Shown here: in pieces, positions 48,809-64,000 of the stretch
Layout: every line of letters starts with the position of its first letter
Position numbering within the stretch: the stretch's first letter is position 1
Assembly (NCBI RefSeq): GCF_009937955.1
Contig: NZ_AP018439.1
Coordinates: 4,898,001-4,962,000 of the forward strand
Reading direction: 5' to 3'
Length of the DNA: 64,000 bases
Source of the DNA: Undibacterium sp. KW1
GTDB lineage: Bacteria; Pseudomonadota; Gammaproteobacteria; Burkholderiales; Burkholderiaceae_D
Notes under the pieces: generated by a model
Databases searched by the model: none
The model's input: only the letters and a program-made list of their open reading frames with translations
Told to the model about the DNA's origin: nothing
Made by a program: the position numbers and the translations under genes

Positions 48809-50953
48809 TTAATCTTTCGACGCGTCATCTTCTTCGTGATTTGTATAAACGTACTTACTCCAACATTTCATTGCCCCGCATACAGTTCCCATACCAATTT
48901 TAGGCCTCACCGAGAAAATCTTCATTGGATCAAAATTGAAACTTGGATTGCCATCACTTTGTTCTAATGAGACACCTCCAGTTGGATTAGTCATTATTAT
49001 GCCACTAGATTCTGACCAACCTATTTCTACCCCACCTGCACCAACACCAACAGAAGGACCACCGCCTGCATACATCCCCGGCCCCACGACTACGCAATAT
49101 TTTTGGTAGACGCCCCAATGGCCTTTATTATCAAAACCGACACCATACTCGACAGTGCCACCTTTCATAAGGGCATGGATTTGCGCACCGACAGAAACCT
49201 GCATGTTCATTGCGCCACCCTGTTTGTCGTGCACAGGAGAAATATATTGCTTAAAGAAATTCATGAAGTCGATCGCCCCTGCTTGTAAGCCCAATCGATC
49301 TGATAATGTGAGCGGCCTCGCTTTAACATAGCCGTAGGTATTAATTCCTCCATTCAACCCAATCGGATCAGATTCCACATACCTTCCTGTCTGCGGATCG
49401 TAATCCCGATGGTAGTTATAGTGCAGCCCCGTCTCCTGATCATAATACTGCCCCGGAAACCGCTGATTAAACACGAACTTAGTTGGTTGGCTGGCTGGCT
49501 GCTCATTCGGCAGCGTCTCCCCAAACGGCGCACTATCCCAACGCCAGACTTCCGTCCCTGTCGCGTCCGTAATCACCCTCGGTGTATTGAGATGATCTGC
49601 ATGAATATCATACGCCTTTGGTGTATTGGCAGTCACTGCGACTGGTACTGCTGCTGAAGTCGTGCTTGCACCGAGGTTGTCTGTAGCTTTTGCCGTCAGG
49701 CTGTAACTCCCTTGAGCCACATTCGCCCAGTTGGTCGTATACGGTGCCTGCGTCACTGTCGCAATGCTGGTTGCGCCATTCAGGAACTCCACTTGCGCAA
49801 TCGTGCCGTCTGTATCCGTTGCTGTCGCATTCAGGATGATGGTCGCTGGCGCTGTGCCATTGGCCGGGTTGGCTGTGAGGCTGACCGTTGGTGCTGAGTT
49901 GTTGATGACATTGACGGTGACAGGTGCCGTGGTTGCCGTGGCGTTCTTATTGTCTGTCGCCTTGGCCGTAACGTTATAGCTGTTGGCCGTGACATTGCTC
50001 CAGTTGACGCTATAGGTCGTGCCGTTCGTGACTGTGGGTGCGGTGGCTGCGAGGCTGATGCCTGCTGGTGCAACGAAGCTGCCATTCGCTGGTGCAGTCT
50101 GGGTAGTTTGCTTGAGTGCGGGTGTCAGGCTGACAGTTGGTGGCGTCGTTGCTGCGGCCTTGACTTGCACACTAACCGGGTTACTGGTTTGTGTGAGGCT
50201 TTGGCTGTCGGTGACTTTGGCTGTCAGGCTATAAGTACCGATTGCGGCATTGGTCCAGCTATAACTGTAGGGGCTGGCTGTTGCGCTACCCAGCAGTGTT
50301 GCTCCATTGTAGAACTCGACTTTTGAGATGGTGCCTTTGCTGTCTGCTGCTGTGGCAGTGATGGCGATCGGTGTACCTACCGTGACACTGGCATTGTTGG
50401 CGGGTGCGGTGACATTGACAGTGATCGGGTTGGTAACGATGATGCTGACGGGGGTGCTGGTCGTTGTGCCGCTGAGGTTGTCGGTTGCCTTGGCGGTGAT
50501 GCTGTAAGTACCAGGTGCGACGTTTGTCCAGCTATAGCTGTAGGGTGCGGCTGTATCACTGTTGAGCAAGGTAGTGCCGTTATAGAACTCGACTTTGCTG
50601 ATGCTGCCATCTGCATCTGTGGCATTGGCCGTCAGGGTGATGGTGGCTTTACCAGCAACGCTGCTGTTGTTGGCGGGTGCTGTGATGCTGACGGTGGGGG
50701 CATTGTTGACGACGACGGCAACTGCGGTCGAGGTCTTGGTTTCATTGTGGCTATTTGTCGCTTTGGCGGTGAGGCTGTAGCTGCCAGTGGTGACATTGCT
50801 CCAGTTGTAGCTGTAGGGGGCTGTCGTGGCTGTACCCAGTAATGTCGTGCCTTGATAGAACTCGACCTTGCTGATGGTGTCGCCGGTGTTGGTGGCAGTG
50901 GCTGTCAGGGTAATGGCTGCGGGTGCACCGTAGCGGGCATTGGCGGCTGCCAT
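48809..50953 (-). CDS. orphan Ig-repeat/Rhs-core toxin cassette 1, 5' truncated
   Basis: A 714-residue frame holding five Ig-like repeats (KVEFYNGTTLL / YSYSWTNVAPGTYSITAKAT units), the Rhs hyperconserved core (HADHLNTPRVITDATGTEVW to GRYVESDPIGLNGG) and a 160-residue tip that is glycine-rich in the middle and unlike any toxin I know. The first repeat starts at NARYGAPAAITL after four residues from an IS66 end fragment, so signal peptide and start are lost. The fourth repeat lacks about 25 residues in frame. Probably a silent cassette; an immunity-type gene follows. Confidence 0.75.
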   Translation of the reverse strand: MAAANARYGAPAAITLTATATNTGDTISKVEFYQGTTLLGTATTAPYSYNWSNVTTGSYSLTAKATNSHNETKTSTAVAVVVNNAPTVSITAPANNSSVAGKATITLTANATDADGSISKVEFYNGTTLLNSDTAAPYSYSWTNVAPGTYSITAKATDNLSGTTTSTPVSIIVTNPITVNVTAPANNASVTVGTPIAITATAADSKGTISKVEFYNGATLLGSATASPYSYSWTNAAIGTYSLTAKVTDSQSLTQTSNPVSVQVKAAATTPPTVSLTPALKQTTQTAPANGSFVAPAGISLAATAPTVTNGTTYSVNWSNVTANSYNVTAKATDNKNATATTAPVTVNVINNSAPTVSLTANPANGTAPATIILNATATDTDGTIAQVEFLNGATSIATVTQAPYTTNWANVAQGSYSLTAKATDNLGASTTSAAVPVAVTANTPKAYDIHADHLNTPRVITDATGTEVWRWDSAPFGETLPNEQPASQPTKFVFNQRFPGQYYDQETGLHYNYHRDYDPQTGRYVESDPIGLNGGINTYGYVKARPLTLSDRLGLQAGAIDFMNFFKQYISPVHDKQGGAMNMQVSVGAQIHALMKGGTVEYGVGFDNKGHWGVYQKYCVVVGPGMYAGGGPSVGVGAGGVEIGWSESSGIIMTNPTGGVSLEQSDGNPSFNFDPMKIFSVRPKIGMGTVCGAMKCWSKYVYTNHEEDDASKD

Positions 50954-51010: not shown

Positions 51011-51343
51011 CCATCATAATCGTTGTTTTACAATGAGTCGTCTGCAATGCGAGCCACAAGGGGTTGGAACCGAATCCGGTAGCCACAGATCTGCCCATCA
51101 ATTGGACGCAACGCGGTACTGAGATGCTTCTGGAGTAGCTGTGCTACTTGGGCGAAATCCAGCTTGATGTTTCGCTAGATCCACATGGGTGAAGCTGCGA
51201 TTCACGCAACCACACGTTGAAGCAAAAGGCACGACGGCATTTTGAAACAAGCGTGTGGTGGCGCAGTAAATATTATCGCGGTGTGTTGCGAGTATGTTGT
51301 TCGACTACTTGACTACCGGGGGCTAAAGGGTAACTCCGTCTTT
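51011..51343. repeat. 330-bp island repeat, copy B
   Basis: Second long copy, downstream of the immunity gene of cassette 2. It differs from copy A by a few substitutions and one inserted base near 51149 that breaks the only long frame. Confidence 0.85.
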
Positions 51344-51726
51344 CACTTAGTAAAAATAGTATCCTCAAGCGCTAGTGTTTTTTTGTTATATACAAGATAA
51401 ATACATCCTCCAAACACAAATTCGACTTTACTCCCAGATTTTGGCCAAAATTGAACTGTATACGAATTGGATTCTTCAAGGATTTTTACTTCGTAATTTT
51501 CGACTTTGCTATAAAACCCATTGTCAGCTTTGTAATTTAATTTCTTCAGAATTTTTGTGATTTTAATATATGACAAGTAGCTGACTTTTAACAGTTCAGC
51601 AGACATCTCCACTTTCGGTGCTAATGGCGGGTATCTATCATAGACGACGCTACCTTCTTGACCATGGCAATCATAAGAAGTCAACAAGTTGATCACAAAA
51701 AAGGATAACCATAATATTCGTTTCAT
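51343..51726 (-). CDS. putative secreted immunity protein of cassette 2
   Basis: A 127-residue protein with a signal peptide (SYDCHGQ). Its start overlaps the stop of the Rhs-type toxin as ATGA, the usual arrangement for toxin-immunity pairs. The mature part (LKKLNYKADNGFYSKVENYEVKIL) is probably a small alpha/beta fold. Export suggests protection in the periplasm. No named family. Confidence 0.6.
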   Translation of the reverse strand: MKRILWLSFFVINLLTSYDCHGQEGSVVYDRYPPLAPKVEMSAELLKVSYLSYIKITKILKKLNYKADNGFYSKVENYEVKILEESNSYTVQFWPKSGSKVEFVFGGCIYLVYNKKTLALEDTIFTK

Positions 51727-53333
51727 TCACATTTACCCAAGTCTGTTGTTTTTCCAGGGATACCAATTTCTGCTGGGTCATAACGCTTTATGCGATTTAG
51801 AGGAGTACCTAAATACGAAGGTACACGCTCTCTATATGCATGTATCTTATCTTTGTCGGAAAAATCCTCGTCAGAGGGCCGTATATATTTTCCATGCGTA
51901 TGGTACATCGCCACAGCAGTACTATGTCGCTCACCTGGGTTTGAATTATGGCTACCTTCTTCGCCATAGTATTTTCTACCTTCGGTATACGAGTACGTAC
52001 CATTAGGATTTCTATATATCCAACCGGCATACTCTCTATTCTGTTCAATTGAGCGTGGATTGTAATCTTTTATTGCTTCCCTAGCAGCCCGCTCACGGCT
52101 AGCATATTCACATTTAGGGCACAATCCAAGTATGTCTATCATGTCTATAGGACTTCCATCAACATAGGCGTACGTGTTTTTTCCACCAGCTAATCCAATA
52201 GGATCAGACTGGACATACCTCCCCACCGCCGGATCATAATCCCTAAAATAATTGTAATGCAGCCCAGTCTCAGCATCATACTGCTGCCCAGGGAAGCGCA
52301 AGTTGAACGTGAACTTGGCCGTTGCTTGAGTCGGCTGCTCATTCGGCAAGGTCTCTCCAAATGGCGCAGTATCCCAGCGCCAGACCTCGTTACCATTCTG
52401 GTCTGTGATCACACGCGGCGTATCTATCTGGTCCGTATGGATATCATAAATCTTTGGTGCACTTGCCGTCACTGCGACTGGTACTGCTACTGAGGTCGTG
52501 CTTACCCCCAGGTTGTCCGTGGCTTTTGCCGTCAGGCTGTAACTCCCCTGCGCCACATTCGCCCAGTTGGTCGTGTACGGTGCCTGCGTGACTGTGGCAA
52601 TGCTGTTGGTTCCGTTGAGGAACTCGACTTGCGCTATCGTGCCGTCGCTGTCTGTTGCTGTCGCATTCAGGATGATGGTTGCTGGTGCCGTGCCATTGGC
52701 CGGGTTGGCTGTGAGGCTGACCGTTGGTGCTGAGTTGTTGATGACATTGACGGTGACTGGTGCTGTCGTTGCCGTGGCGTTCTTGTTATCGGTCGCCTTG
52801 GCGGTGATGTTATAGCTGTTGGCTGTCACATTCGTCCAGTTGACACTGTAGGTGTTGCCGTTGGTGGTCGTTGGTGCGGTGGCAGTCCCTATCAGTGTTG
52901 CCCCTTGATAAAACTCAACCTTGCTAATCGTGCTGCCGGATGCGGGTGTAGCTGTCGCTGCCAGGCTGATGCCTGCCGGGGCAATGAAGGTGCCATTCGC
53001 TGGTACAGTCTGGGTAGTTTGCTTGAGTGCGGGTGTCAGACTGACAGTGGGTGGCGTTGTCGCTGCGGCCTTGACTTGCACACTGACTGCGGTACTGGTT
53101 TGCGTGAGGCTTTGGCTGTCAGTGACTTTTGCTGTCAGGCTATAAGTACCGATTGCGGCATTGGTCCAGCTATAACTGTAGGGGCTGGCTGTTGCGCTAC
53201 CCAGCAGTGTTGCTCCATTGTAGAACTCGACTTTTGAGATGGTGCCTTTGCTGTCTGCTGCTGTGGCAGTGATGGCGATCGGTGTACCTACCGTGACACT
53301 GGCATTGTTGGCGAAGATGGGGTCAGGTCTCAC
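51723..53333 (-). CDS. orphan Ig-repeat/Rhs-core toxin cassette 2 (DUF4329-like tip)
   Basis: A 536-residue frame with repeats 3-5 of the Ig-like series, the Rhs core (HTDQIDTPRVITDQNGNEVW to GRYVQSDPIGLAGG) and a tip resembling DUF4329: EYAGWIYRNPNGTYSY, HTHGKYIRPSDEDFSDKD and YLGTPLNRIKRYDP. The conserved HTHG may be catalytic. The 5' end is lost at 53,316 where a REP-associated element joins (GTG then RPDPIF is element sequence). Repeat 3 is closest to cassette 1 and repeat 5 and the core to cassette 3. Probably silent. Confidence 0.78.
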   Translation of the reverse strand: MRPDPIFANNASVTVGTPIAITATAADSKGTISKVEFYNGATLLGSATASPYSYSWTNAAIGTYSLTAKVTDSQSLTQTSTAVSVQVKAAATTPPTVSLTPALKQTTQTVPANGTFIAPAGISLAATATPASGSTISKVEFYQGATLIGTATAPTTTNGNTYSVNWTNVTANSYNITAKATDNKNATATTAPVTVNVINNSAPTVSLTANPANGTAPATIILNATATDSDGTIAQVEFLNGTNSIATVTQAPYTTNWANVAQGSYSLTAKATDNLGVSTTSVAVPVAVTASAPKIYDIHTDQIDTPRVITDQNGNEVWRWDTAPFGETLPNEQPTQATAKFTFNLRFPGQQYDAETGLHYNYFRDYDPAVGRYVQSDPIGLAGGKNTYAYVDGSPIDMIDILGLCPKCEYASRERAAREAIKDYNPRSIEQNREYAGWIYRNPNGTYSYTEGRKYYGEEGSHNSNPGERHSTAVAMYHTHGKYIRPSDEDFSDKDKIHAYRERVPSYLGTPLNRIKRYDPAEIGIPGKTTDLGKCE

Positions 53334-53551: not shown

Positions 53552-55141
53552 TTATAGCTGTGTAGAGTTCGGAAATGGCAGCAGCGAATCGATCTGGTTG
53601 TTAGGGCACGTCGGGAGACGTTCCAGGACGCTGGTCAGCCATTGCATCGGATCAAGGCCATTGAGCCTGGCGGTGCCCAGCAAGGTCTGGATGGCGGCAG
53701 CACGGCGGCCGGCGCGTTCTGAGCCGGCGAACAGCCAGTTCTTCTTGCCTATGGCAATCGGACGTATCGCGTTTTCGACCGCATTGTTATCAATCGGCAG
53801 CGTGCCCGAATCGATATAGCGCACCAGCGCCGGCCAGCGTTTGAGTGCGTGCTCAATGGCCTTGCCCGTGCCGCTGCCTGGTGCGACAGCTTGTTGCATC
53901 GTCTGCAGCCAGGCATGCAGTTCAACCAGTACCGGCCTGGCTTGCACTTGCCGTAGTTGCAGGCGCGCTTCGGCCGTCGCGCTCGCGGCCTGTTGCTCGA
54001 TGGCGTACAGTGTTGCGATGCGGCGTAGTGCCTCGGCCGCCACCGGGCTGCCGTTGGCCGCATGTAGCTCGAAGAACCTGCGCCGCACGTGGGCCAGGCA
54101 AGCCAGTTCGGTCACGCCATCGGCGAACAGTGCCTTGTAGCCGGCATAGTCATCCACCATAAGATGGCCGCGCCATGTACCGAGGAAGGTGCGTGCGTGA
54201 GCACCGGCACGGCCGCTCTGGTAGTCAAACACGATAATGGGTGGCCCCTGGTCCAGATGGTTGGAGCGATAGGCCCACAAATAGGCGTGTTTGGTCTTGC
54301 CCTGGCCGGGATCAAGTTGGCGTACCGGGGTTTCGTCGGCATGCAGGCAAGGCCGCTGCAGCAGCAGCCCGGCTAGTCGCTCGCTTAAGGGTTGCAATAC
54401 CACGCCGAGCTTACCTATCCAGCCTGCCAACGTAGAACGCGCCAGCGGCACACCCTGGCGGGCGGCGATCTGTTCCAGCCGGTACAGCGGCAAATGATCG
54501 GCAAACTTGCTGACCGCAACCCAGGCCAACAAGCCGGGAGCGGCGAGGCCACCATCGATCACCGCTGGCGGGATCGCCGCAGCGGTGACCGTGTCGCAGC
54601 CACGGCAGGCATATTGAGGACGAATATGGCGATGCACAAAGAAGCGTGCTGGTTCGACATCAAGTTGTTCGCTGACGTCTTCGCCGATCTTGACCAGGTC
54701 GCGCCCGCAGGCTGCACATTGGCAAGAGCTTGGTTCATGGCGGTACTCAATGCGCGGCAGTTCGCTGGGCAGCGGCTGGCGACCGGCACGGCTGCGCGGC
54801 TTGGCCGGACGCGGCGCTTGCAGCGCCTCCAGTTCGGCCTCCATCGCCGCCAGGTCGGCATCGCCGGCTTCGTTGAACATATCCAGTTGCTCGCCGCTGT
54901 AGGCTTCGCTGGCCTTGCCGAAACGGATGCGCCTGTGATGCGCCAGTTCCAGCGTCAGTGCCTTGATCTTGATGTCCTTGGCGTGCCCAGCGGCACTCAA
55001 CGCATCCTGCTGTCTCTGCAGGACGTGTAGTTGGGCATCCTTCGCAGCGATCAACTCGTCCTTCTGGGCCAGCATGGCCTGCAACTGCGCAAGGAGCGCA
55101 GGGTCGGCGTTGGTATGGGCGAGTTGTTCGAGCAGATCCAT
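53552..55141 (-). CDS. tnpC: IS66 transposase TnpC
   Basis: A 529-residue DDE transposase. An N-terminal coiled coil and a zinc-finger-like part (CQCAACGRDLVKIGE) are followed by the catalytic residues in LHADETPVRQL, MVDDYAGYK and IDNNAVENAIRPIAIGKKNW. It is full length with no frameshift. It lies 43 bp after tnpB. Confidence 0.95.
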   Translation of the reverse strand: MDLLEQLAHTNADPALLAQLQAMLAQKDELIAAKDAQLHVLQRQQDALSAAGHAKDIKIKALTLELAHHRRIRFGKASEAYSGEQLDMFNEAGDADLAAMEAELEALQAPRPAKPRSRAGRQPLPSELPRIEYRHEPSSCQCAACGRDLVKIGEDVSEQLDVEPARFFVHRHIRPQYACRGCDTVTAAAIPPAVIDGGLAAPGLLAWVAVSKFADHLPLYRLEQIAARQGVPLARSTLAGWIGKLGVVLQPLSERLAGLLLQRPCLHADETPVRQLDPGQGKTKHAYLWAYRSNHLDQGPPIIVFDYQSGRAGAHARTFLGTWRGHLMVDDYAGYKALFADGVTELACLAHVRRRFFELHAANGSPVAAEALRRIATLYAIEQQAASATAEARLQLRQVQARPVLVELHAWLQTMQQAVAPGSGTGKAIEHALKRWPALVRYIDSGTLPIDNNAVENAIRPIAIGKKNWLFAGSERAGRRAAAIQTLLGTARLNGLDPMQWLTSVLERLPTCPNNQIDSLLPFPNSTQL

Positions 55142-55184
55142 GGCGCCATGTTAACAGATTCGCGTCGAAGTTAACAGGGACTTG

Positions 55185-55529
55185 CTACAGTGCCCAGGCT
55201 GCCGGAGCCGGTGCCGACAAGCGCTGCCAATCGACGCCGGCCACCAGCCACTGCCATTGCTCGGCGGTCAATTGCCAACTGAGCTCGCCAGGCTTGGGCC
55301 AGACGAATTGACCACGGTGCAGGCGGCGCACGCACATCCACACGCCGTTGCCATCCCAGCACACCACTTTGAGGCGTGTGTGGCGCCGGTTGCTGAAAAC
55401 GTAGGCAGTACCGTCGCAAGGCATACGCCCCAGTGCTTGCTGGACGTAGGTTGACAGGCGGTCGATCCCGGCGCGGATGTCGACCGGCTGCACCGCCAGC
55501 CAGATGGCATCTGCCTGCCATTGCATCAC
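55185..55529 (-). CDS. tnpB: IS66 accessory protein TnpB
   Basis: A 114-residue IS66 Orf2-type protein (WLAVQPVDIRAGIDRLSTYV; VFSNRRHTRLKVVCWDGNGVWMC) required for transposition of IS66 elements. Its start overlaps tnpA by four bases. The typical C-terminal GVDWQRL is present. Confidence 0.93.
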   Translation of the reverse strand: MMQWQADAIWLAVQPVDIRAGIDRLSTYVQQALGRMPCDGTAYVFSNRRHTRLKVVCWDGNGVWMCVRRLHRGQFVWPKPGELSWQLTAEQWQWLVAGVDWQRLSAPAPAAWAL

Positions 55530-55858
55530 AGGCCACGCAGCAGGTCGGACAGCCAGTCCGCCTTGACCTCGGGTGGCAGACGCAGTTCCCAGCCTTGCGG
55601 GCTGCGCAACATCAGCCCTGTGGGAGCAGAAGGAGCAGATGTTACTTGCACGGGTAATAGCGCAATGCCGGGATGCTGCGCTTGGGATGCTGACTTATTC
55701 TCAACAGACTGTTCGGCGATGAGTGCGCGCCGCCAATAGTCGAAGGTGGAGAACTTGAGGCCTGCATGCTCGCAAAAGGCGCGCTGACTCAGTGCACTCT
55801 GCTGCCACTGGGTGATGTGCTGTTGCCACTGCTGCCGCTTGGCTTGATCTCGTTTCAT
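55526..55858 (-). CDS. tnpA: IS66 accessory protein TnpA
   Basis: A 110-residue IS66 Orf1-type DNA-binding protein (SQRAFCEHAGLKFSTFDYWRR) with a helix-turn-helix. I take the ATG at 55858 because GAGGAG precedes it; the frame stays open 16 codons further upstream. It ends overlapping tnpB. Confidence 0.88.
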   Translation of the reverse strand: MKRDQAKRQQWQQHITQWQQSALSQRAFCEHAGLKFSTFDYWRRALIAEQSVENKSASQAQHPGIALLPVQVTSAPSAPTGLMLRSPQGWELRLPPEVKADWLSDLLRGL

Positions 55859-55940
55859 ACTGCTCCTCTTTACTTGTGATGGGAGCGTGAGTCTGGATGA
55901 GGTCATCGTTCAATGCTAGATGGGGCGGCTGGACGCTTAC

Positions 55941-55948
55941 CTGGTAGG
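55941..55948. repeat. IS66 target duplication, right copy
   Basis: CTGGTAGG, matching 53510-53517. Confidence 0.9.
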
Positions 55949-56665
55949 TATGCAATGGTAAAGATATCGCACGTCGATGTGCAATGGAGACGTCTCTGAG
56001 GTCTTCCGGGCGCAATTGATGTTGGTATTTTTCGACAAACTCATCATCCCCCAGCAGCAGTTGGTGCCGGGTCGCCAGCAGGGGTGAAGCCAAGCCTATT
56101 CCGTCCAGTACAAACTTGGCATAGGCCACCCTGGCCTGCTTACGTTTACTGCCGAACTGTCCCAATAACCAGTCAGTGTCCAGCCACGGCGGCGCATGCT
56201 GATCACGCACGCAGTAGTCATAACTACTCCAGTGCCATTGCTCTGGCATTGCCACCATCCTGGCACGCACCGGATTGAGCACAATGTAGCGCGCCAGTTC
56301 CAATAAATGCGCTTCTTTTTGTACCAGGATAGCCTTGTACCTACCCTGGAACAAATGCCCCACTTGCTTGTGCCGACGATTGAAACACTGGGTATATAAA
56401 CCATTGAGTTGACGCATGCCCCGCGACAAATTGCCATCGATGGTTTCCACCAGCAGATGGTAGTGATTACTCATCTCGCAGTAAGCATGCACCACCCAGT
56501 TAAAGCGGTCGCAGACCTCTGCCAGTACCGTCAACCACTCTTGCCTGTCCTCATCATCCAAAAAGATATCCTCACGCCTGTCCCCGCGAGAAGTGACGTG
56601 ATACAAAGCACCTGCAAACTCTAGTCTTAGGGGTCTGGCCATTGCTCAAGCTCAACACAATTTTT

Positions 56666-57354: not shown

Positions 57355-57783
57355 TTACTTCAAAAAAGCGCCGTATGCATCCAATTGAATAGAAATTTCT
57401 AAATCAGCAACCCTACGAAGGATTTGCCAATCAAGGATTAATCCAGCAGTCCCTTCAAAAAACCATCCAATAAAAAAGTGCATTTGACCGCCGGAAGACG
57501 TCATTTTAACAATGTCGCTCTTTTTCGACTCCAATAGGTCAAGCGTTCGATTGATGGCAGCCTCCAAAGTATCATCCTGATCAAAATCTAATGTACATGT
57601 ACAAAAGGACTGTTTATGTACTCCACCCAACAATCTGCCGTCTTTAGTTTTTCTTACTTCCCCGGCAGTATTCCATTTCCATGGAATCAGTCCAATAAGA
57701 TCACAAAATACCAATAAATCTAGCTCAGGATGCGTCATCCTTAAAGATAGAGAAAATTCCTTATTCTTGCGTGGCGTCTTCAT
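57355..57783 (-). CDS. putative DUF4279-like immunity protein of cassette 3
   Basis: A 142-residue cytoplasmic protein with the pattern of DUF4279-type immunity proteins: a first strand-helix part (EFSLSLRMTHPELDLLVFCDLIGL), KDGRLLGGVHKQSFCTCTLDF and a C-terminal ADLEISIQLDAYG. Its ATG overlaps the toxin stop as TGATG. Close coupling to the Rhs tip marks it as the likely immunity gene; a cytoplasmic protein fits a toxin acting in the cytoplasm. Confidence 0.65.
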   Translation of the reverse strand: MKTPRKNKEFSLSLRMTHPELDLLVFCDLIGLIPWKWNTAGEVRKTKDGRLLGGVHKQSFCTCTLDFDQDDTLEAAINRTLDLLESKKSDIVKMTSSGGQMHFFIGWFFEGTAGLILDWQILRRVADLEISIQLDAYGAFLK

Positions 57784-59822
57784 CAACAGTCATCCCTCTT
57801 ATTTCTATTCCCGTTTCGACCATTCTTTCCTCCTTTTCCGCCAGGCTTTTTATTTGACTTTGTATCTGGTGGACCGTGATTAATTCCCTTTCCATCAACA
57901 TCGCTGGTCCAAACATCTCCCGCTGGTGAAATGCCTGTCCAATCTTTAGGTCCCGCGTTAACCCCATCCTTGATTTCGTGTACCGTATCTCTGTCCCAAC
58001 CTTGTTCATCAATACCTCTAGTTCCTCGTGGGGCATCAGTTGGTTTTGATTCATTGCCTGGTTTCGCTCCAGCGTTTGCGACCCAATTCGCTGCTTTTCG
58101 AACACTGTCCCAATTCCACGTCGGCAAATTAGCACTTGGTTTTGACCAATTAGTGTTTTGGCTCATATACCAAGCACCACCAATTACAACCCCAATACAT
58201 GGGAGACACAATCCAGTGGGATCAACGCCATCAAGTGGACTGCTATTCACATAGTCATAAGTGGAGAGACTACCGCCATAGAGACCAATCGGATCACTCT
58301 GAACATACCTGCCCGCCTGCGGATCATAATCCCTATAGTAATTGTAATGCAGCCCCGTCTCAGCATCATACTGCTGTCCAGCGAATCGCAAATTGAAGAC
58401 GAACTTAGCCGTTGCCTGCGTCGGTTGCTCATTCGGCAGTGACTCTCCAAACGGCGCACTATCCCAGCGCCAGACCTCATTACCATTCTGGTCTGTGATC
58501 ACACGCGGCGTATCTATCTGGTCCGTATGGATATCATAAATCTTTGGTGCACTTGCCGTCACTGCGACCGGTACTGCTACTGAGGTCGTGCTTACCCCCA
58601 GGTTGTCCGTGGCTTTTGCCGTCAGGCTGTAACTCCCCTGCGCCACATTCGCCCAGTTGGTCGTGTACGGTGCCTGCGTGACTGTGGCAATGCTGTTGGT
58701 TCCGTTGAGGAACTCGACTTGCGCTATCGTGCCGTCGCTGTCTGTTGCTGTTGCATTCAGGATGATGGTCGCTGGTGCGGTGGCGTTGGCGGGGTTGGCT
58801 GTGAGGCTGACCGTTGGAGCGCTGTTGTTGATGACATTGACAGTCACAGGTGCTGTGGTTGCCGTGGCGCTCTTGTTGTCGGTCGCCTTGGCGGTGATGT
58901 TATAGCTGTTCGCTGTCACATTCGTCCAGTTGACGCTGTAGGTGTTGCCGTTGGTGGTCGTTGGTGCGGTGGCTGTGCCTATCAGTGTTGCGCCCTGGTA
59001 AAACTCGACCTTGGCAATCGTGCTGCCGGATGCGGGGGTGGCTGTTGCTGCGAGGCTGATGTCTGCTGGTGCAATGAAGCTGCCGTTCGCCGGTGCTGTC
59101 TGTGTCGTCTGCTTGAGGGCAGGCGTCAGGCTGACGGTTGGTGGCGTTGTCGCTGCTGCCTTGACCTGGACACTGGCGGCATTGCTGGTTTGTGTGATGC
59201 TTTGGCTGTCTGTTGCTTTGGCGGTGATGCTGTAAGTGCCGACTGCGGCATTGGTCCAGTTGTAGGTATAAGGGCTGGCTGTGGCGCTGCCGAGCAGGGT
59301 GGTGCCGTTGTAGAACTCGATTTTACTGATTGTGCCTTTGCTGTCTGTTGCTGTGGCTGTCATGGCAATGGGCGTGCCTACCGTGACGCTGGCGTTGTTG
59401 GCCGGTGCGGTCAAATTCACCGTGATGGGGTTGGTGACGGTGATGCTGATGAAGTTACTTGTCGCGGTGCCGCTGAGGTTGTCGGTGGCTTTGGCGGTGA
59501 TGGTATAGCTGCCGGGGGCGACATTGGTCCAGTTGTAGCTGTAGGGAGCGGTCGTGCTGCTGCCGAGTAAGGTGGTGCCGTTGTAGAACTCGACTTTGCT
59601 GATCGTGCCATCATTGTCAGCCGCATTGGCTGACAGGGTGATGCTGGCTTTGCCGACAACGCTGCTGTTGTTGGCGGGTGCCGTGAGGCTGACCGTGGGG
59701 GCGTTGTTGACGATGGCAGCTATTGCTGTGGAGGTCTTGCTTTCATTGTGGCTATTTGTCGCTTTGGCGGTGAGGCTGTAGCTGCCGGTGGTGACGTTGG
59801 TCCAGTTGTAGACGTAGGGGGC
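57783..59822 (-). pseudogene. Rhs component C: Ig repeats, Rhs core and toxin tip (after frameshift)
   Basis: Continuation, in the other frame, of the ORF that starts at 60184. It holds the rest of Ig-like repeat 1 and repeats 2-5, then the Rhs hyperconserved core (HTDQIDTPRVITDQNGNEVW; YDAETGLHYNYYRDYDP; GRYVQSDPIGLYGG). The tip of about 140 residues contains RDTVHEIKDGVNAGPKDW and a basic Lys/Gly-rich tail, a polymorphic-toxin domain I cannot name with certainty. A single missing base near 59822 separates it from its signal peptide. The frame is otherwise intact. Confidence 0.8.
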
Positions 59823-60184
59823 GTGGTGACTGCACCCAGCAAAGTACTGCCTTGGTAGAACTCGACTTTGCTGATGGTGTCGCCACTGCTGGCGGCAACG
59901 GCTGTCAGGGTAATGGCTGCTGGTGAAGTGTAGCGGGCATTGTTCGTCGGGGTGTTCAGGCCGACGGTGGGTGCGACGGCGAAGGCTGGGCTGCTGATGG
60001 CGAGGCTGCCCAGTCCTGTGATGCAGGTCAGGGCTGCGCTGAGGGCTGCTCTGCTGAGTGATGGTTGGTAAAACAAATTTTTCTCCCCTGCCATCAGGTC
60101 TGCTCTCGTGGGTGACTTGATGGCTGTTTTTTCAGTAATGGGTTTGACTCTTGGATGCTTGTCTCTGGCTACCAGTTTCATCAT
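59720..60184 (-). CDS. Rhs component C, N-terminal part with signal peptide
   Basis: Starts at 60184, overlapping the stop of component B as ATGA. After a long basic lead it has a hydrophobic signal segment ending SSPAFAVAP near residue 70, then the first Ig-like repeat (TNNARYTSPAAITLTAVAAS; KVEFYQGSTLLGAVTT). From about 59,822 the frame departs from the repeat pattern (PPTSTTGPTSPP) and stops at 59720; one extra base would lead into the next 680 codons. So this is the 5' part of one gene with a one-base deletion or sequencing error. Confidence 0.75.
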   Translation of the reverse strand: MMKLVARDKHPRVKPITEKTAIKSPTRADLMAGEKNLFYQPSLSRAALSAALTCITGLGSLAISSPAFAVAPTVGLNTPTNNARYTSPAAITLTAVAASSGDTISKVEFYQGSTLLGAVTTPPTSTTGPTSPPAATASPPKRQIATMKARPPQQ

Positions 60185-61593
60185 TTGATGACCGCCACCG
60201 GAATGTTATCCAGATAGACGTAATCCACATCACCTTGCCCATTGCGTTCGCTGATGAGCCTGCCGTTCATGTCGTAGTGGTAGACGGTGTTCGTTGCGGG
60301 ATTGCTGCCATTGGCGGGAACGTTCTTTTGTACGCGCTGGCCCAGGGCATTGATCTGGTATTGGACAGTACCAATGGCTGTCGTTGCAGTGATCATGCGG
60401 CCACGGGCGTCATAGCTGAACTGGTTGATGCCGTTGTTGGTGATGCTGCCATTGGGGTCAGTGGCAACAGGTTTGACCTGGCTATCAGTCACCTGGGCCA
60501 GTCGGTTGCTGGTGCTGGCGTAGCTGTAGCTGGTGTTGGCGGCGCCATTGGTCTTGGTGCTGCGGTTACCGACGGCATCGTAGCTGAAGCTTTGGCTGGT
60601 TTGTGGTGTGAGGTAGCTGGTCAGGCGGTCAAGGGTGTCGTAGCCGTAGGTAGCCTGGCGGTTGGGGTTGTTGACTTCGTTGATGGTGGCAATACGGCCA
60701 CCGGCATCGTAGGTAATGGCTTGTACTTTGTTGCTGAGGGTAAAACTGGCAATGCGGCCTTCGTTGTCAAAGCCGCGTGTGTAGTTTTGACCAGCGCTGT
60801 TGCGGTAGCTTTGTACGCCGCTGAAGGGGCGGTAAGTTGCCTGGCTCAGGATGGTGGCAGCAATGCCGTCTTTGCTGGTGTCAATCTGGGTGATGCGCCC
60901 GAGGGCATCACGGGTGTAGCTGATCTGGCGGCCATTGGGGTAGGTCAGACTGCTTAACCGGCCTGCTGTGTCGTACTGGTAGCGGGTGACATTATTGACG
61001 CTGTTCATCACGCGGGTTTCTGTCAACACGCGGCCACGCATGTCGTAGGTGTAGCTGATGCTGCTGTTCTGGTCGCTGATGGTGCTGAGGCGGCCTTTGG
61101 CATTGGTACCCTGGTCATAGGTATAGGTGGTGACGCTGTTGTCGTGGTAGGTGATGCTGGTGATGCGGTTGAGGACATCATAGGTGTAGCGGGTGATTTG
61201 TCCTTTGGCGTCTTTTTTGGTGAGGACATTGCCTGCCGCATCGACGGTGAGTATGGTGTCGCCGGTGTCGGGGCTAGTGAGGCCCAGCTGGTTACCGAGA
61301 CCATCAACATTATATAAAGTGGAGAGGTTGCGGGCATCGGTGACTTTGGTGAGGCGGTCTTGTCCGTTATATTCATAGCGGGTGATTTTATTGTCAGCGT
61401 CAGTCTGGGTCTTCAGGCGACCGAGTGCATCATATTCGAGTATGGTGATGGAGTTGTTGGCATTGAAGCTTTTGGTGACATTGCCCATGGCATCATAGGC
61501 AAACTGGCAGGTGGTGCTGGCAACAGTCTGGCCATACAGGCTGATCAATGTGGCGGCGAGTATGCTTCGTTTCATCAGGATAGATTTTTTCAT
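60181..61593 (-). CDS. Rhs component B: YD-repeat protein with signal peptide
   Basis: A 470-residue YD-repeat protein. It begins with its own signal peptide (MKRSILAATLISLYGQTVAS), then about fifteen YD repeats (EYDALGRLKTQTDADNKITRYEYNG and similar). It ends MNGRLISERNGQGDVDYVYLDNIPVAVIK, the segment that in ordinary Rhs proteins directly precedes the H-x-DHLxTPR core. The core itself is in component C. ATGA overlaps join it to both neighbours. A separately exported middle part of an Rhs shell is unusual. Confidence 0.85.
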   Translation of the reverse strand: MKKSILMKRSILAATLISLYGQTVASTTCQFAYDAMGNVTKSFNANNSITILEYDALGRLKTQTDADNKITRYEYNGQDRLTKVTDARNLSTLYNVDGLGNQLGLTSPDTGDTILTVDAAGNVLTKKDAKGQITRYTYDVLNRITSITYHDNSVTTYTYDQGTNAKGRLSTISDQNSSISYTYDMRGRVLTETRVMNSVNNVTRYQYDTAGRLSSLTYPNGRQISYTRDALGRITQIDTSKDGIAATILSQATYRPFSGVQSYRNSAGQNYTRGFDNEGRIASFTLSNKVQAITYDAGGRIATINEVNNPNRQATYGYDTLDRLTSYLTPQTSQSFSYDAVGNRSTKTNGAANTSYSYASTSNRLAQVTDSQVKPVATDPNGSITNNGINQFSYDARGRMITATTAIGTVQYQINALGQRVQKNVPANGSNPATNTVYHYDMNGRLISERNGQGDVDYVYLDNIPVAVIK

Positions 61594-64000
61594 TGGACGC
61601 CTCCGGTCACTTTTTGCAGGCGGTTGAGGGCGTCATAAATGCGGTCAATCTGGCGTGTGAGGTTGCCACTGCTGTCAGTGGTGGTTTCATTGATGCGGTT
61701 ACCCATATTGTCGAGGGTGTAGGTGATGCTGTTGCCTAAGTTGTCGCTGACTTTTGTGAGGCGGTGGGCATCGTCGTAGGTGTAGCTGATGCTGCTGTTG
61801 TCTGGCAAGGTGACTTTGATCATCTGGCCTGCATTGTCGTAATCGTAGGTGGTGGTTTCTGACTGGCCGTCACCTGTGCTGACTTTTTGTTTGAGCCAGC
61901 CGCGTGGCGTGTACGTCAGAGTAGTGACGAGCCCATTGGGGTCGGTGATCTGGCCTACTCTGCCGTTGGCGTCGTAGTTATCCAGGGTGGTGATGTGGCC
62001 AGCGGCGTTGGTGATGGTGCTGAGGTTGCCTTTGGTGTCGTAGACGTAGGTGGTTTTATCAACGACATCGGTGCGCGGGCCGGTGACGGTCAGGACCTGA
62101 CCTACTTCATTGTAGGTGTAGCTCCAGGTGCGGGGGCTGCCTGTCACTGTGGCATTGGCACCCTGGCTACCGTTCACGTCGCTGGTGGTTTGTTCTGTTC
62201 TGGTCAGGACGTTGCCTTTGCTGTCGTACGTATAAGTGGTACGCAGCAAGGGGACGTTGATTTGCAGGGGAGACGTAAAATTGGCATGCCAGCTGGTGGT
62301 GGTGGTTTGGGCCACTGCCGTGCCGCTCGCGTCAACACGTTTAGTTTCGAGGTTACGGCTCAGGTCATATTCGTAGGTGGTGATGGTGCCATTAAAATCA
62401 GTGGTGCTGGCGATATTGCCGTTGGCGTCATAGGTTTTGTTGCTGATGTTGGCGCAATTCACGCAAGGCTGGTCAACGCCGGTATTGCCGAGAGTATTGA
62501 GCATGGCTTTGAACTGGTAGGTTGCCGTTACCTTTTGCGGATTGGCGCTGGTACCAAGGTAGGTATCAACCACTGTAGATTGCACGCCGCTGGCATTGGC
62601 AGCAACGAAGCTGAGGGTGACTTTTTCTACACCGCCTGCATGCTGTGAAGATGTTGCACGGCCCATGCAGTCATAGGTCCAGCTGGCATAGCGCTTGCCG
62701 TTTTCGTCTATGATGCCGGTCAATACATAGGGCAGGCCACCAGAGCCATTACCCACTGAACTGGCATAGTCGCAGGCATTACCGCCATTAATATTGCTGG
62801 CCTCGTTGTACACATAGCTGCGGGTTTTGCCGTCAGGATAAGTGACTGAAGTAAGATTACTTGCATTGCAAGAAATACTCTGCGTGTTGCTGCCGCACCC
62901 CCCTGTCACACCATCGTAGGCATACTGATATTGTCCACCCGCCGGGTCAGTAATATTGTTGATGCGTCCCTTGGCGTCATAACTGAACTTGATCTGTTTG
63001 TTCCAGTTATCTGTCACGCACAAGAGCTTGCCTGCCTTCAGCGTCGGCCCTGCATTTGCCGTACCACAAACCGGCGCATCGGCCGGAAGACGACTGACTG
63101 TGGTGTCGTTCGTCGCGCCCGAACTATACGTCAGTTTATAGACAACACCATTTCTTTTGGTGATGGAAATCAAACGGCCTTTAGCGTCATATTGCTCTAC
63201 TTCGTCGATTGATGTATTGCGCAAAGTCCAGCCAGTGACAGTCGTATTGTCGGCATTGTACTGAGCGAGCAGCTTGAAGTCAGCATTGGAATCACCCTGC
63301 CAGACCAGGCCATTGCGATTAAAAAAGACTTTATTTCCCCGTGGGCGTGTAACAGATACCGCTTCAGGGACCGTTGCAGTTGTCGTTGCTGGTTTGTTTT
63401 CACACCAGTATGCCTGATAGTCTGCAGAAATATAGCAATCAGAACGTGACTGATTGAGTGTCAAAGCCGCCTCTGGCTGTATGCGGGATTCAAAGTTGTG
63501 TGTCCACCTGCGACCAAACTGATTAACATCTGCAGAACCAGGCTTGAATGGATTACTGTCATAAAAGCGGGTAATGCTAAGATCACTGATATGAGCGACG
63601 CTAAATTCTTTTTCAGCTTGAACTTTTGCGCCAGTTGCAATTGAAATAGGGTTACCGCAAGAGGGGTTGGGGCCACCACCATCACCAGAGCCTGGACACA
63701 TTTTGGGTGGCTCAGGTTGCGGCGGCTGATTGTAAACGCTAATGCAAGCCTGTTGCTTGCTGAACCAGCGGTAATAAGATGCTTGGCAGACACATGCCTT
63801 TGCAGCTTTACTGTATATGGTATTGGATGGGCAAACATATTGATAACTCGTAATCATCCCATGCTCTGAAACGACCTCTCTGCCATCGTACAGATAATTG
63901 CTGCAATAAATCGCAAATAGTGGATGCTCTTCATTTTCATCAGGAGGTGACGTATATTTAATTTCTTTCAAGCGCCCTGCTTGACCATCCAGCCAACTTG
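61590..64000 (-). CDS. Rhs component A: DUF6531 and YD-repeat protein, 5' end outside window
   Basis: At least 793 residues; the frame remains open to the window edge (SWLDGQAGRLKEIKYT), so the start lies beyond 64000. A Cys-rich, Pro-rich lead is followed by the Rhs N-terminal DUF6531-type signature (GNPISIATGAKVQAEKEFSV; LSITRFYDSN; GRRWTHNFESRIQ) and many YD repeats (YDAKGRINNITDPAGGQYQYAYDG). It ends LTRQIDRIYDALNRLQKVTGGVQ and overlaps component B by ATGA. It supplies the first part of the Rhs shell. Confidence 0.88.
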   Translation of the reverse strand, partial: SWLDGQAGRLKEIKYTSPPDENEEHPLFAIYCSNYLYDGREVVSEHGMITSYQYVCPSNTIYSKAAKACVCQASYYRWFSKQQACISVYNQPPQPEPPKMCPGSGDGGGPNPSCGNPISIATGAKVQAEKEFSVAHISDLSITRFYDSNPFKPGSADVNQFGRRWTHNFESRIQPEAALTLNQSRSDCYISADYQAYWCENKPATTTATVPEAVSVTRPRGNKVFFNRNGLVWQGDSNADFKLLAQYNADNTTVTGWTLRNTSIDEVEQYDAKGRLISITKRNGVVYKLTYSSGATNDTTVSRLPADAPVCGTANAGPTLKAGKLLCVTDNWNKQIKFSYDAKGRINNITDPAGGQYQYAYDGVTGGCGSNTQSISCNASNLTSVTYPDGKTRSYVYNEASNINGGNACDYASSVGNGSGGLPYVLTGIIDENGKRYASWTYDCMGRATSSQHAGGVEKVTLSFVAANASGVQSTVVDTYLGTSANPQKVTATYQFKAMLNTLGNTGVDQPCVNCANISNKTYDANGNIASTTDFNGTITTYEYDLSRNLETKRVDASGTAVAQTTTTSWHANFTSPLQINVPLLRTTYTYDSKGNVLTRTEQTTSDVNGSQGANATVTGSPRTWSYTYNEVGQVLTVTGPRTDVVDKTTYVYDTKGNLSTITNAAGHITTLDNYDANGRVGQITDPNGLVTTLTYTPRGWLKQKVSTGDGQSETTTYDYDNAGQMIKVTLPDNSSISYTYDDAHRLTKVSDNLGNSITYTLDNMGNRINETTTDSSGNLTRQIDRIYDALNRLQKVTGGVQ

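What the first reader, a model, noticed from the sequence alone, without database searches (positions are those of the whole stretch)
61590..64000. Rhs machine split into three translationally coupled, separately exported proteins
Seen: three ORFs (component A to 61590, B 60181-61593, C from 60184) are joined by ATGA overlaps. B and C each begin with a clear Sec-type signal peptide. Known: Rhs/YD-repeat toxins are normally one long polypeptide whose shell encloses the C-terminal toxin. Inference: this shell is assembled outside the cytoplasm from three exported pieces, a design I do not know from described Rhs systems. No T6SS, VgrG or PAAR gene is visible in the window.
Basis: partly seen in the sequence, partly recalled or inferred. 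Interest (0 to 1): 0.85.

Follow-up and report, generated by a model that had tools for sequence, protein, structure and literature searches.

The report
Three-piece exported toxin shell in bacteria
In Undibacterium and related bacteria, a toxin container that is normally one giant protein is encoded as two or three neighbouring genes, each with its own likely export signal, so the container probably has to be put together outside the cell's interior.

Summary
A and B line up end to end on fused homologues, and C's core follows them. Stand-alone B, ending at the B/C seam, makes up 95 of the 120 listed best B homologues (fully fused ones were too long to be found). In 43 split loci the A-to-B start is a 4-nt overlap in 34 (33 ATGA, 1 GTGA), a 1-nt overlap in 3, a gap in 6, with a ribosome-binding site in A's last codons. 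So this is no recent frameshift. Corrections: C is frame-broken in this genome (intact elsewhere); the B/C ATGA is not conserved (2 of 17); a two-chain Rhs shell is known (TcB/TcC), and B begins about where TcC begins. The own genome has no TssB or VgrG-type match. In six genomes a type-II-secretion-like operon lies within 15 kb of a B-type gene, two of these genes looking damaged. Best reading: Sec export of the pieces, assembly in the periplasm, release perhaps by that system. Assembly, route and toxicity are inferred, not shown.

The parts
61590..64000 (-). Component A (DUF6531 + YD repeats); continues 247 nt beyond the window to an ATG at L009:8248 (885 aa), with an N-terminal signal-like segment there
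   Evidence: PF20148, PF05593; model of the 802 aa in the window, pLDDT 87.3
61600..61604 (-). Ribosome-binding-site-like GGAGG inside A's last codons, 6 nt before B's ATG
61590..61593 (-). ATGA overlap of A stop and B start
60181..61593 (-). Component B, 470 aa, YD-repeat strip, follows A in the shell
   Evidence: (pLDDT 92.5)
61516..61593 (-). Sec-type signal of B (about 26 aa; residues 1-25 have pLDDT below 50)
   Evidence: cleavage site judged by eye
60181..60184 (-). ATGA overlap of B stop and C start (not conserved in most relatives)
59720..60184 (-). Component C, first piece: signal segment and start of the first Ig-like domain (Big_7); frame broken after this
57783..59843 (-). Component C, remainder in a different frame: Ig-like domains, Rhs_assc_core (closing part of the shell), tip
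   Evidence: (TIGR03696)
57355..57786 (-). Small gene starting at the stop of the C tip; DUF4279 match just over its cut-off (25.2 against 25 bits); possible immunity gene
51723..53333 (-). Displaced C-type cassette without signal, tip = DUF4329 (listed as Tox-JAB-2 in PMC3482391)
51343..51726 (-). Gene overlapping (ATGA) the end of the DUF4329 tip; N-terminus looks exported by eye; no Pfam or NCBIfam match; possible immunity gene
48809..50953 (-). Second displaced C-type cassette: Ig-like domains + Rhs core + another tip, no signal

Best explanation
A, B and C are three chains of one Rhs/YD-repeat toxin shell. Shown by sequence: A and B are consecutive segments of what is a single chain in other bacteria, with C's core following; A and B are kept as separate genes under purifying selection in this family; B's start overlaps A's end with a selected ribosome-binding site; each chain begins with a signal-like segment. 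Inferred: A, B and C cross the inner membrane separately through Sec, and the strip of A, the strip of B and the closing core of C assemble edge to edge in the periplasm into one closed shell around C's tip. C acts as an exchangeable cartridge (signal, Ig-like or other stalk, closing core, variable tip). More weakly inferred: the finished particle leaves through a type II secretion system, in some genomes one encoded near it. In the window's own strain the C cartridge is broken as assembled, so that copy may be inactive or the sequence may hold an error.
Against: No complex was modelled or seen; only single chains were predicted. The signal calls rest on a home-made test with a high base rate (15 of 42 window ORFs of 200 aa or more also pass); no SignalP was available. 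The homologue searches take only proteins of 0.55-1.75 times the query's length, so fully fused relatives could not be listed. On L122-L124 the C alignment runs back into the B part, and on L123 A and B overlap by 19 residues. B alone folds confidently, so it might act alone. dS is near saturation in several pairs. Three of the nine genus genomes with a strong B match do have a TssB match (G004, G031, G041). The T2SS-like secretin is unlinked in the own genome (C1:2525408), occurs in 208 of 392 family genomes and is missing from 5 of 53 B genomes; of the six linked B genes, G218's is a fragment and G219's match holds one stop. Sequences are related, so the P values overstate. Toxicity is untested and most tips have no Pfam match.
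Confidence: 0.7

Rival explanations
1. A TcB/TcC-like two-chain shell in which C has simply come apart: the system is a Sec-exported cousin of the Tc BC component, and only the A/B seam matters.
Confidence: 0.12
2. A, B and C are exported separately and work separately, for example as surface adhesins, with no joint shell.
For: B is a well-predicted module on its own; C carries Ig-like strings typical of surface proteins; exported YD proteins related to cell-adhesion receptors are known (PMC13018210, passages).
Against: Fused homologues in several combinations, conserved coupling of A and B, and no YD sequence lost at the A/B seam.
Confidence: 0.1
3. Programmed frameshifting makes one A-B-C chain; the hydrophobic stretches are linkers.
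For: The B frame is open for some codons before its ATG.
Against: A ribosome-binding-site-like motif selected in A's last codons; hydrophobic stretches absent from fused linkers (0 of 15; 0 of 14 at junctions); six loci have gaps of 2-295 nt between A stop and B start.
Confidence: 0.04
4. A decaying Rhs gene broken by recent frameshifts.
For: C is frame-broken in this genome and displaced cassettes lie beside it.
Against: The same A/B break with overlapping starts in 13 of 13 genus loci and 24 of 30 other family loci; dN/dS far below 1.
Confidence: 0.04

Closest known systems
T6SS Rhs effectors (RhsA 7q97, RhsP 8h8a/8h8b, Tre23 7pq5, Tse5 8cp6, Tse15 8uy4)
   Same: Same YD shell; A and B match successive parts; closing core and variable tip in C.
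   Different: Those are single chains delivered by T6SS; here separate chains with signal-like starts, and no TssB or Phage_GPD match in the genome.
Tc toxin BC component (TcB + TcC)
   Same: Shell made of two chains (PMC10847046, passages); B begins about where TcC begins; A's match to TcB is less secure.
   Different: Here each chain has a Sec-type signal, A is much shorter than TcB, and there is a third chain. YenTc release by a lysis cassette is described in passages of PMC10847046.
Bcn-A of Xanthomonas (Rhs-family bacteriocin, PMC7259588, passages read)
   Same: Rhs-type toxin of a Gram-negative bacterium whose activity was lost in an xpsD (type II secretion) mutant.
   Different: Bcn-A is one 1,398-aa protein.
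Sec/T2SS class of polymorphic toxins (PMC3482391, passages read)
   Same: Signal peptide, RHS repeats, Ig-like domains, variable tips incl. Tox-JAB-2 = DUF4329; it also lists a TcdB/TcaC class with signal peptide and SpvB domain.
   Different: No division of the shell into several exported chains in the passages seen.
Bacterial teneurin-like proteins (PMC13018210, passages read)
   Different: Single chains.

Membership tests
Rhs/YD-repeat shell superfamily | RHS/YD repeats | tested here: met
   PF05593 in A (1.4e-50) and B (3.4e-51)
Rhs/YD-repeat shell superfamily | RHS-associated core closing the shell | tested here: met
   TIGR03696 in C's second piece, both displaced cassettes and the three intact relatives scanned
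Rhs/YD-repeat shell superfamily | beta-strip shell fold | tested here: met
Rhs/YD-repeat shell superfamily | variable C-terminal tip with immunity gene | tested here: inconclusive
   tips differ between loci and small genes follow 16 of 18 C genes looked at, but of eight tips scanned only one (DUF4329) matches above a cut-off
canonical single-chain Rhs effector | shell in one polypeptide | tested here: not met
   A, B, C are separate frames, A/B conserved as such
T6SS Rhs effector | T6SS and VgrG in the genome | tested here: not met
   no TssB and no Phage_GPD in the own genome; one PAAR match
Tc BC component | two-chain shell divided at the TcB/TcC seam | tested here: inconclusive
   B starts near TcC's start in three chains; A ends near TcB's end in two, but aligns to TcC in other entries
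Tc BC component | TcA partner | tested here: inconclusive
   no TcA_TcB_BD match, but nothing rang in the controls either
Sec-exported polymorphic toxin | N-terminal signal peptide | tested here: met
   (home-made test with high base rate, not SignalP)
Sec-exported polymorphic toxin | secretion by T2SS | not testable with these tools
   only genomic association

The most novel reading that the evidence does not exclude
A periplasm-assembled Rhs particle: two or three translationally coupled, separately Sec-exported chains close into one toxin shell outside the cytoplasm, with C as an exchangeable cartridge, and the finished particle is released by a dedicated T2SS-like machine (its secretin carrying a TPR-like and in some loci a cohesin domain) encoded near it in some genomes.
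Probability: 0.35. Interest if true: 0.88.

Novelty: new variant of a known kind. Interest (0 to 1): 0.76.

Why it matters
Rhs shells are thought to fold around their own toxin as one chain, before a secretion machine ejects them. A shell that must be closed outside the cytoplasm from separate chains would mean that the toxin is exported unfolded and packed afterwards. It would make shell assembly separable into parts that can be tested one by one, and could explain how shell-type toxins are used by bacteria without T6SS. The family is large (1,356 B homologues at E up to 1e-20 among 8,000 candidates scored), and the names shown for it are generic.

Tried and rejected
Recent-frameshift reading: rejected for A/B. 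Frameshift fusion: rejected on fused-linker and gap evidence. Placing on Tc: the sequence profile put B 26-217 on 149-347 of 5kis_B, the structural alignment 44-470 on 4-567; I trust the full-length structural one more because repeats slip, but the disagreement stands. In 4igl_B and fused Tc entries A's YD part aligns to TcC rather than TcB. On 7q97 the ranges of A (to 855) and B (from 742) overlap, also likely slippage. TcA search was uninformative. Tip function: mostly no Pfam match. Neighbours of A: only T2SS-like genes recurred in more than two of the 39 loci with upstream sequence, in three. The secretin profile often matches only to about position 620-670 of 808, so most of the 208 may lack the cohesin end. 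Plasmid search gave only distant homologues (775 records, all under 60% identity); not followed. Literature: no description of a split, multiply exported Rhs shell in the listings of eight searches or the passages of four papers; the library holds open-licence papers only. A ninth search on the secretin type showed 8 of 32 papers, none with 'cohesin domain'.

Full report
WHAT IS THERE. On the minus strand A ends at 61590, B spans 60181-61593 and C starts at 60184, both junctions ATGA. A begins 247 nt outside the window. Pfam: A has DUF6531 and RHS repeats, B only RHS repeats, C Ig-like domains (Big_7) and a weak RHS end; the RHS-associated core TIGR03696 was found in the C-type genes scanned, not in A or B. 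C's frame is broken inside the first Ig-like domain; relatives L051 and L053 have it intact. Two displaced C-type cassettes without signals lie downstream.

CONSERVATION. In the genus, 12 of 43 genomes have a B match at E up to 1e-20. Of the 13 matches with E below 1e-70, B's stop-to-stop frame is 482-511 aa in 11, and 643 or 805 aa in two, where it runs on into C. In the family, 53 of 392 sampled genomes match at E up to 1e-60, with three main frame classes: about 474-538 aa (B alone), 640-870 (B with C) and 1,260-1,580 (all in one), besides shorter pieces and a few in between. In the order sample (399 genomes, 27 with a match), a frame of B-alone length occurred only in the own genome. I fetched flanks of 11 genus and 40 family loci, not of all 91 matches (my sum). 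Of 45 split-type loci examined, 2 (L115, L119) had no upstream A in view; in the other 43 the B start is ATGA 33, GTGA 1, TAATG 3, and gaps of 2, 2, 79, 79, 169 and 295 nt. Of the 120 listed best B homologues (of 1,356; only proteins of 0.55-1.75 times B's length can be listed), 95 are stand-alone B, 10 B with C, 14 of AB type and 1 other; 107 end within 6 aa of the seam motif YLxDxPVAV.

COUPLING. A's last residues are mostly ...TG(A/G)xQ (95 of 120 listed A homologues), and the Gly codon supplies a GGAG-like site some 6-8 nt before B's ATG. In 34 overlap loci with the motif the codon is GGA or GGG in 33, against 27.6% of Gly codons in the same A genes (P 4e-19 without allowing for kinship; 3 overlap loci without the motif were dropped). 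The B/C border is looser: ATGA in the window and in 2 of 17 relatives with intact C, gaps of 2-11 nt in 7 and 47-514 nt in 8, to the first possible start codon (L041, an AB|C locus, is one of the 17; of the B-alone loci, L009 with broken C, and L095, L097, L099, L130 with C missing or cut by a contig end, were left out).

EXPORT. By a simple test (positive start, hydrophobic stretch, small-x-small site) 87 of 95 stand-alone B, 8 of 10 BC, 0 of 14 AB-type (their listed starts lie inside A) and 0 of 15 fused linkers are signal-like; but 15 of 42 window ORFs also pass, and 66 of 88 longer A homologues. All 17 intact C proteins have an N-terminal hydrophobic segment (the best stretch was picked), with a positive n-region in 15; four have only TTG or GTG starts before it. 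In 14 fused proteins no hydrophobic segment lies at a junction; 3 of the 14 had none over the threshold. A keeps 12 cysteine columns in at least 80% of 64 rows, B none; five fused relatives have 6-8 cysteines in the A-equivalent part. The gene that follows the DUF4329 tip has an exported-looking start (51343-51726, by eye), as expected if the tip is met in the periplasm.

ROUTE OUT. The own genome has no TssB and no Phage_GPD match; three of the nine genus genomes with a strong B match do have TssB. The standard secretin GspD is in 43 of 43 genus genomes, so it says little. Among genes beside A only T2SS-like ones recurred in more than two loci: L060, L061 and L096. They belong to an operon with GspG, GspF, a GspE/PilB-like ATPase, PilN- and PilO-like proteins, pseudopilins and a secretin with a C-terminal cohesin match and a TPR-like start (TPR judged by eye). 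The secretin profile finds 208 of 392 family genomes at E up to 1e-120, 48 of the 53 with B against 160 of 339 without (Fisher 6e-10, confounded by kinship). Six genomes have it within 15 kb of a B match where 0.64 pairs were expected (threshold set afterwards): three A|B|C (G010, G041, G139), two A|BC (G315, and G219 whose match holds one stop), and G218 with a B fragment. The last three operons were checked by blastp; not every gene was found in every locus. In the own genome the secretin is unlinked. An Rhs bacteriocin needing type II secretion is on record (PMC7259588, passages).

VERDICT. A real, conserved arrangement, undescribed as far as the searches named in Tried and rejected reach: an Rhs shell divided into two or three chains, A and B coupled, each with its own likely export signal. 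It works like an Rhs/Tc shell; it is not a T6SS effector by the tests made, and it is not filed as a Tc toxin. The joint shell, its place of assembly, the way out and the toxicity remain to be shown.

Noticed in passing
G000:C2 about 59849-80089 and G000:C1 about 4496457-4511240 (own genome, outside the window): Very long open frames of 8,277 and 9,143 aa full of RHS repeats, plus one of 3,953 aa near C1:4399571; giant YD proteins in the same genome.
   Followed up: no
window 53552-56642: IS66-type transposase genes and a REP-associated-type transposase between the C cassettes (names recalled from the sequence, no family search); may have displaced the cassettes.
   Followed up: no
L132:5986-15509, L133:5167-15218, L134:2351-11624, L135:12175-19904, L136:9883-18693, L137:3716-13378: T2SS/type-IV-pilus-like operons near B-type genes; the secretin of L134 has a C-terminal cohesin domain. 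The secretin profile matches 208 of 392 family genomes, many without the C-terminal part.
   Followed up: partly
L041, behind 9890: Two C-type genes in a row, each with a signal-like start, behind one AB gene; the second is partly masked.
   Followed up: partly
window 51343-51726: Possible immunity gene with an exported-looking start overlapping the DUF4329 tip by ATGA.
   Followed up: partly
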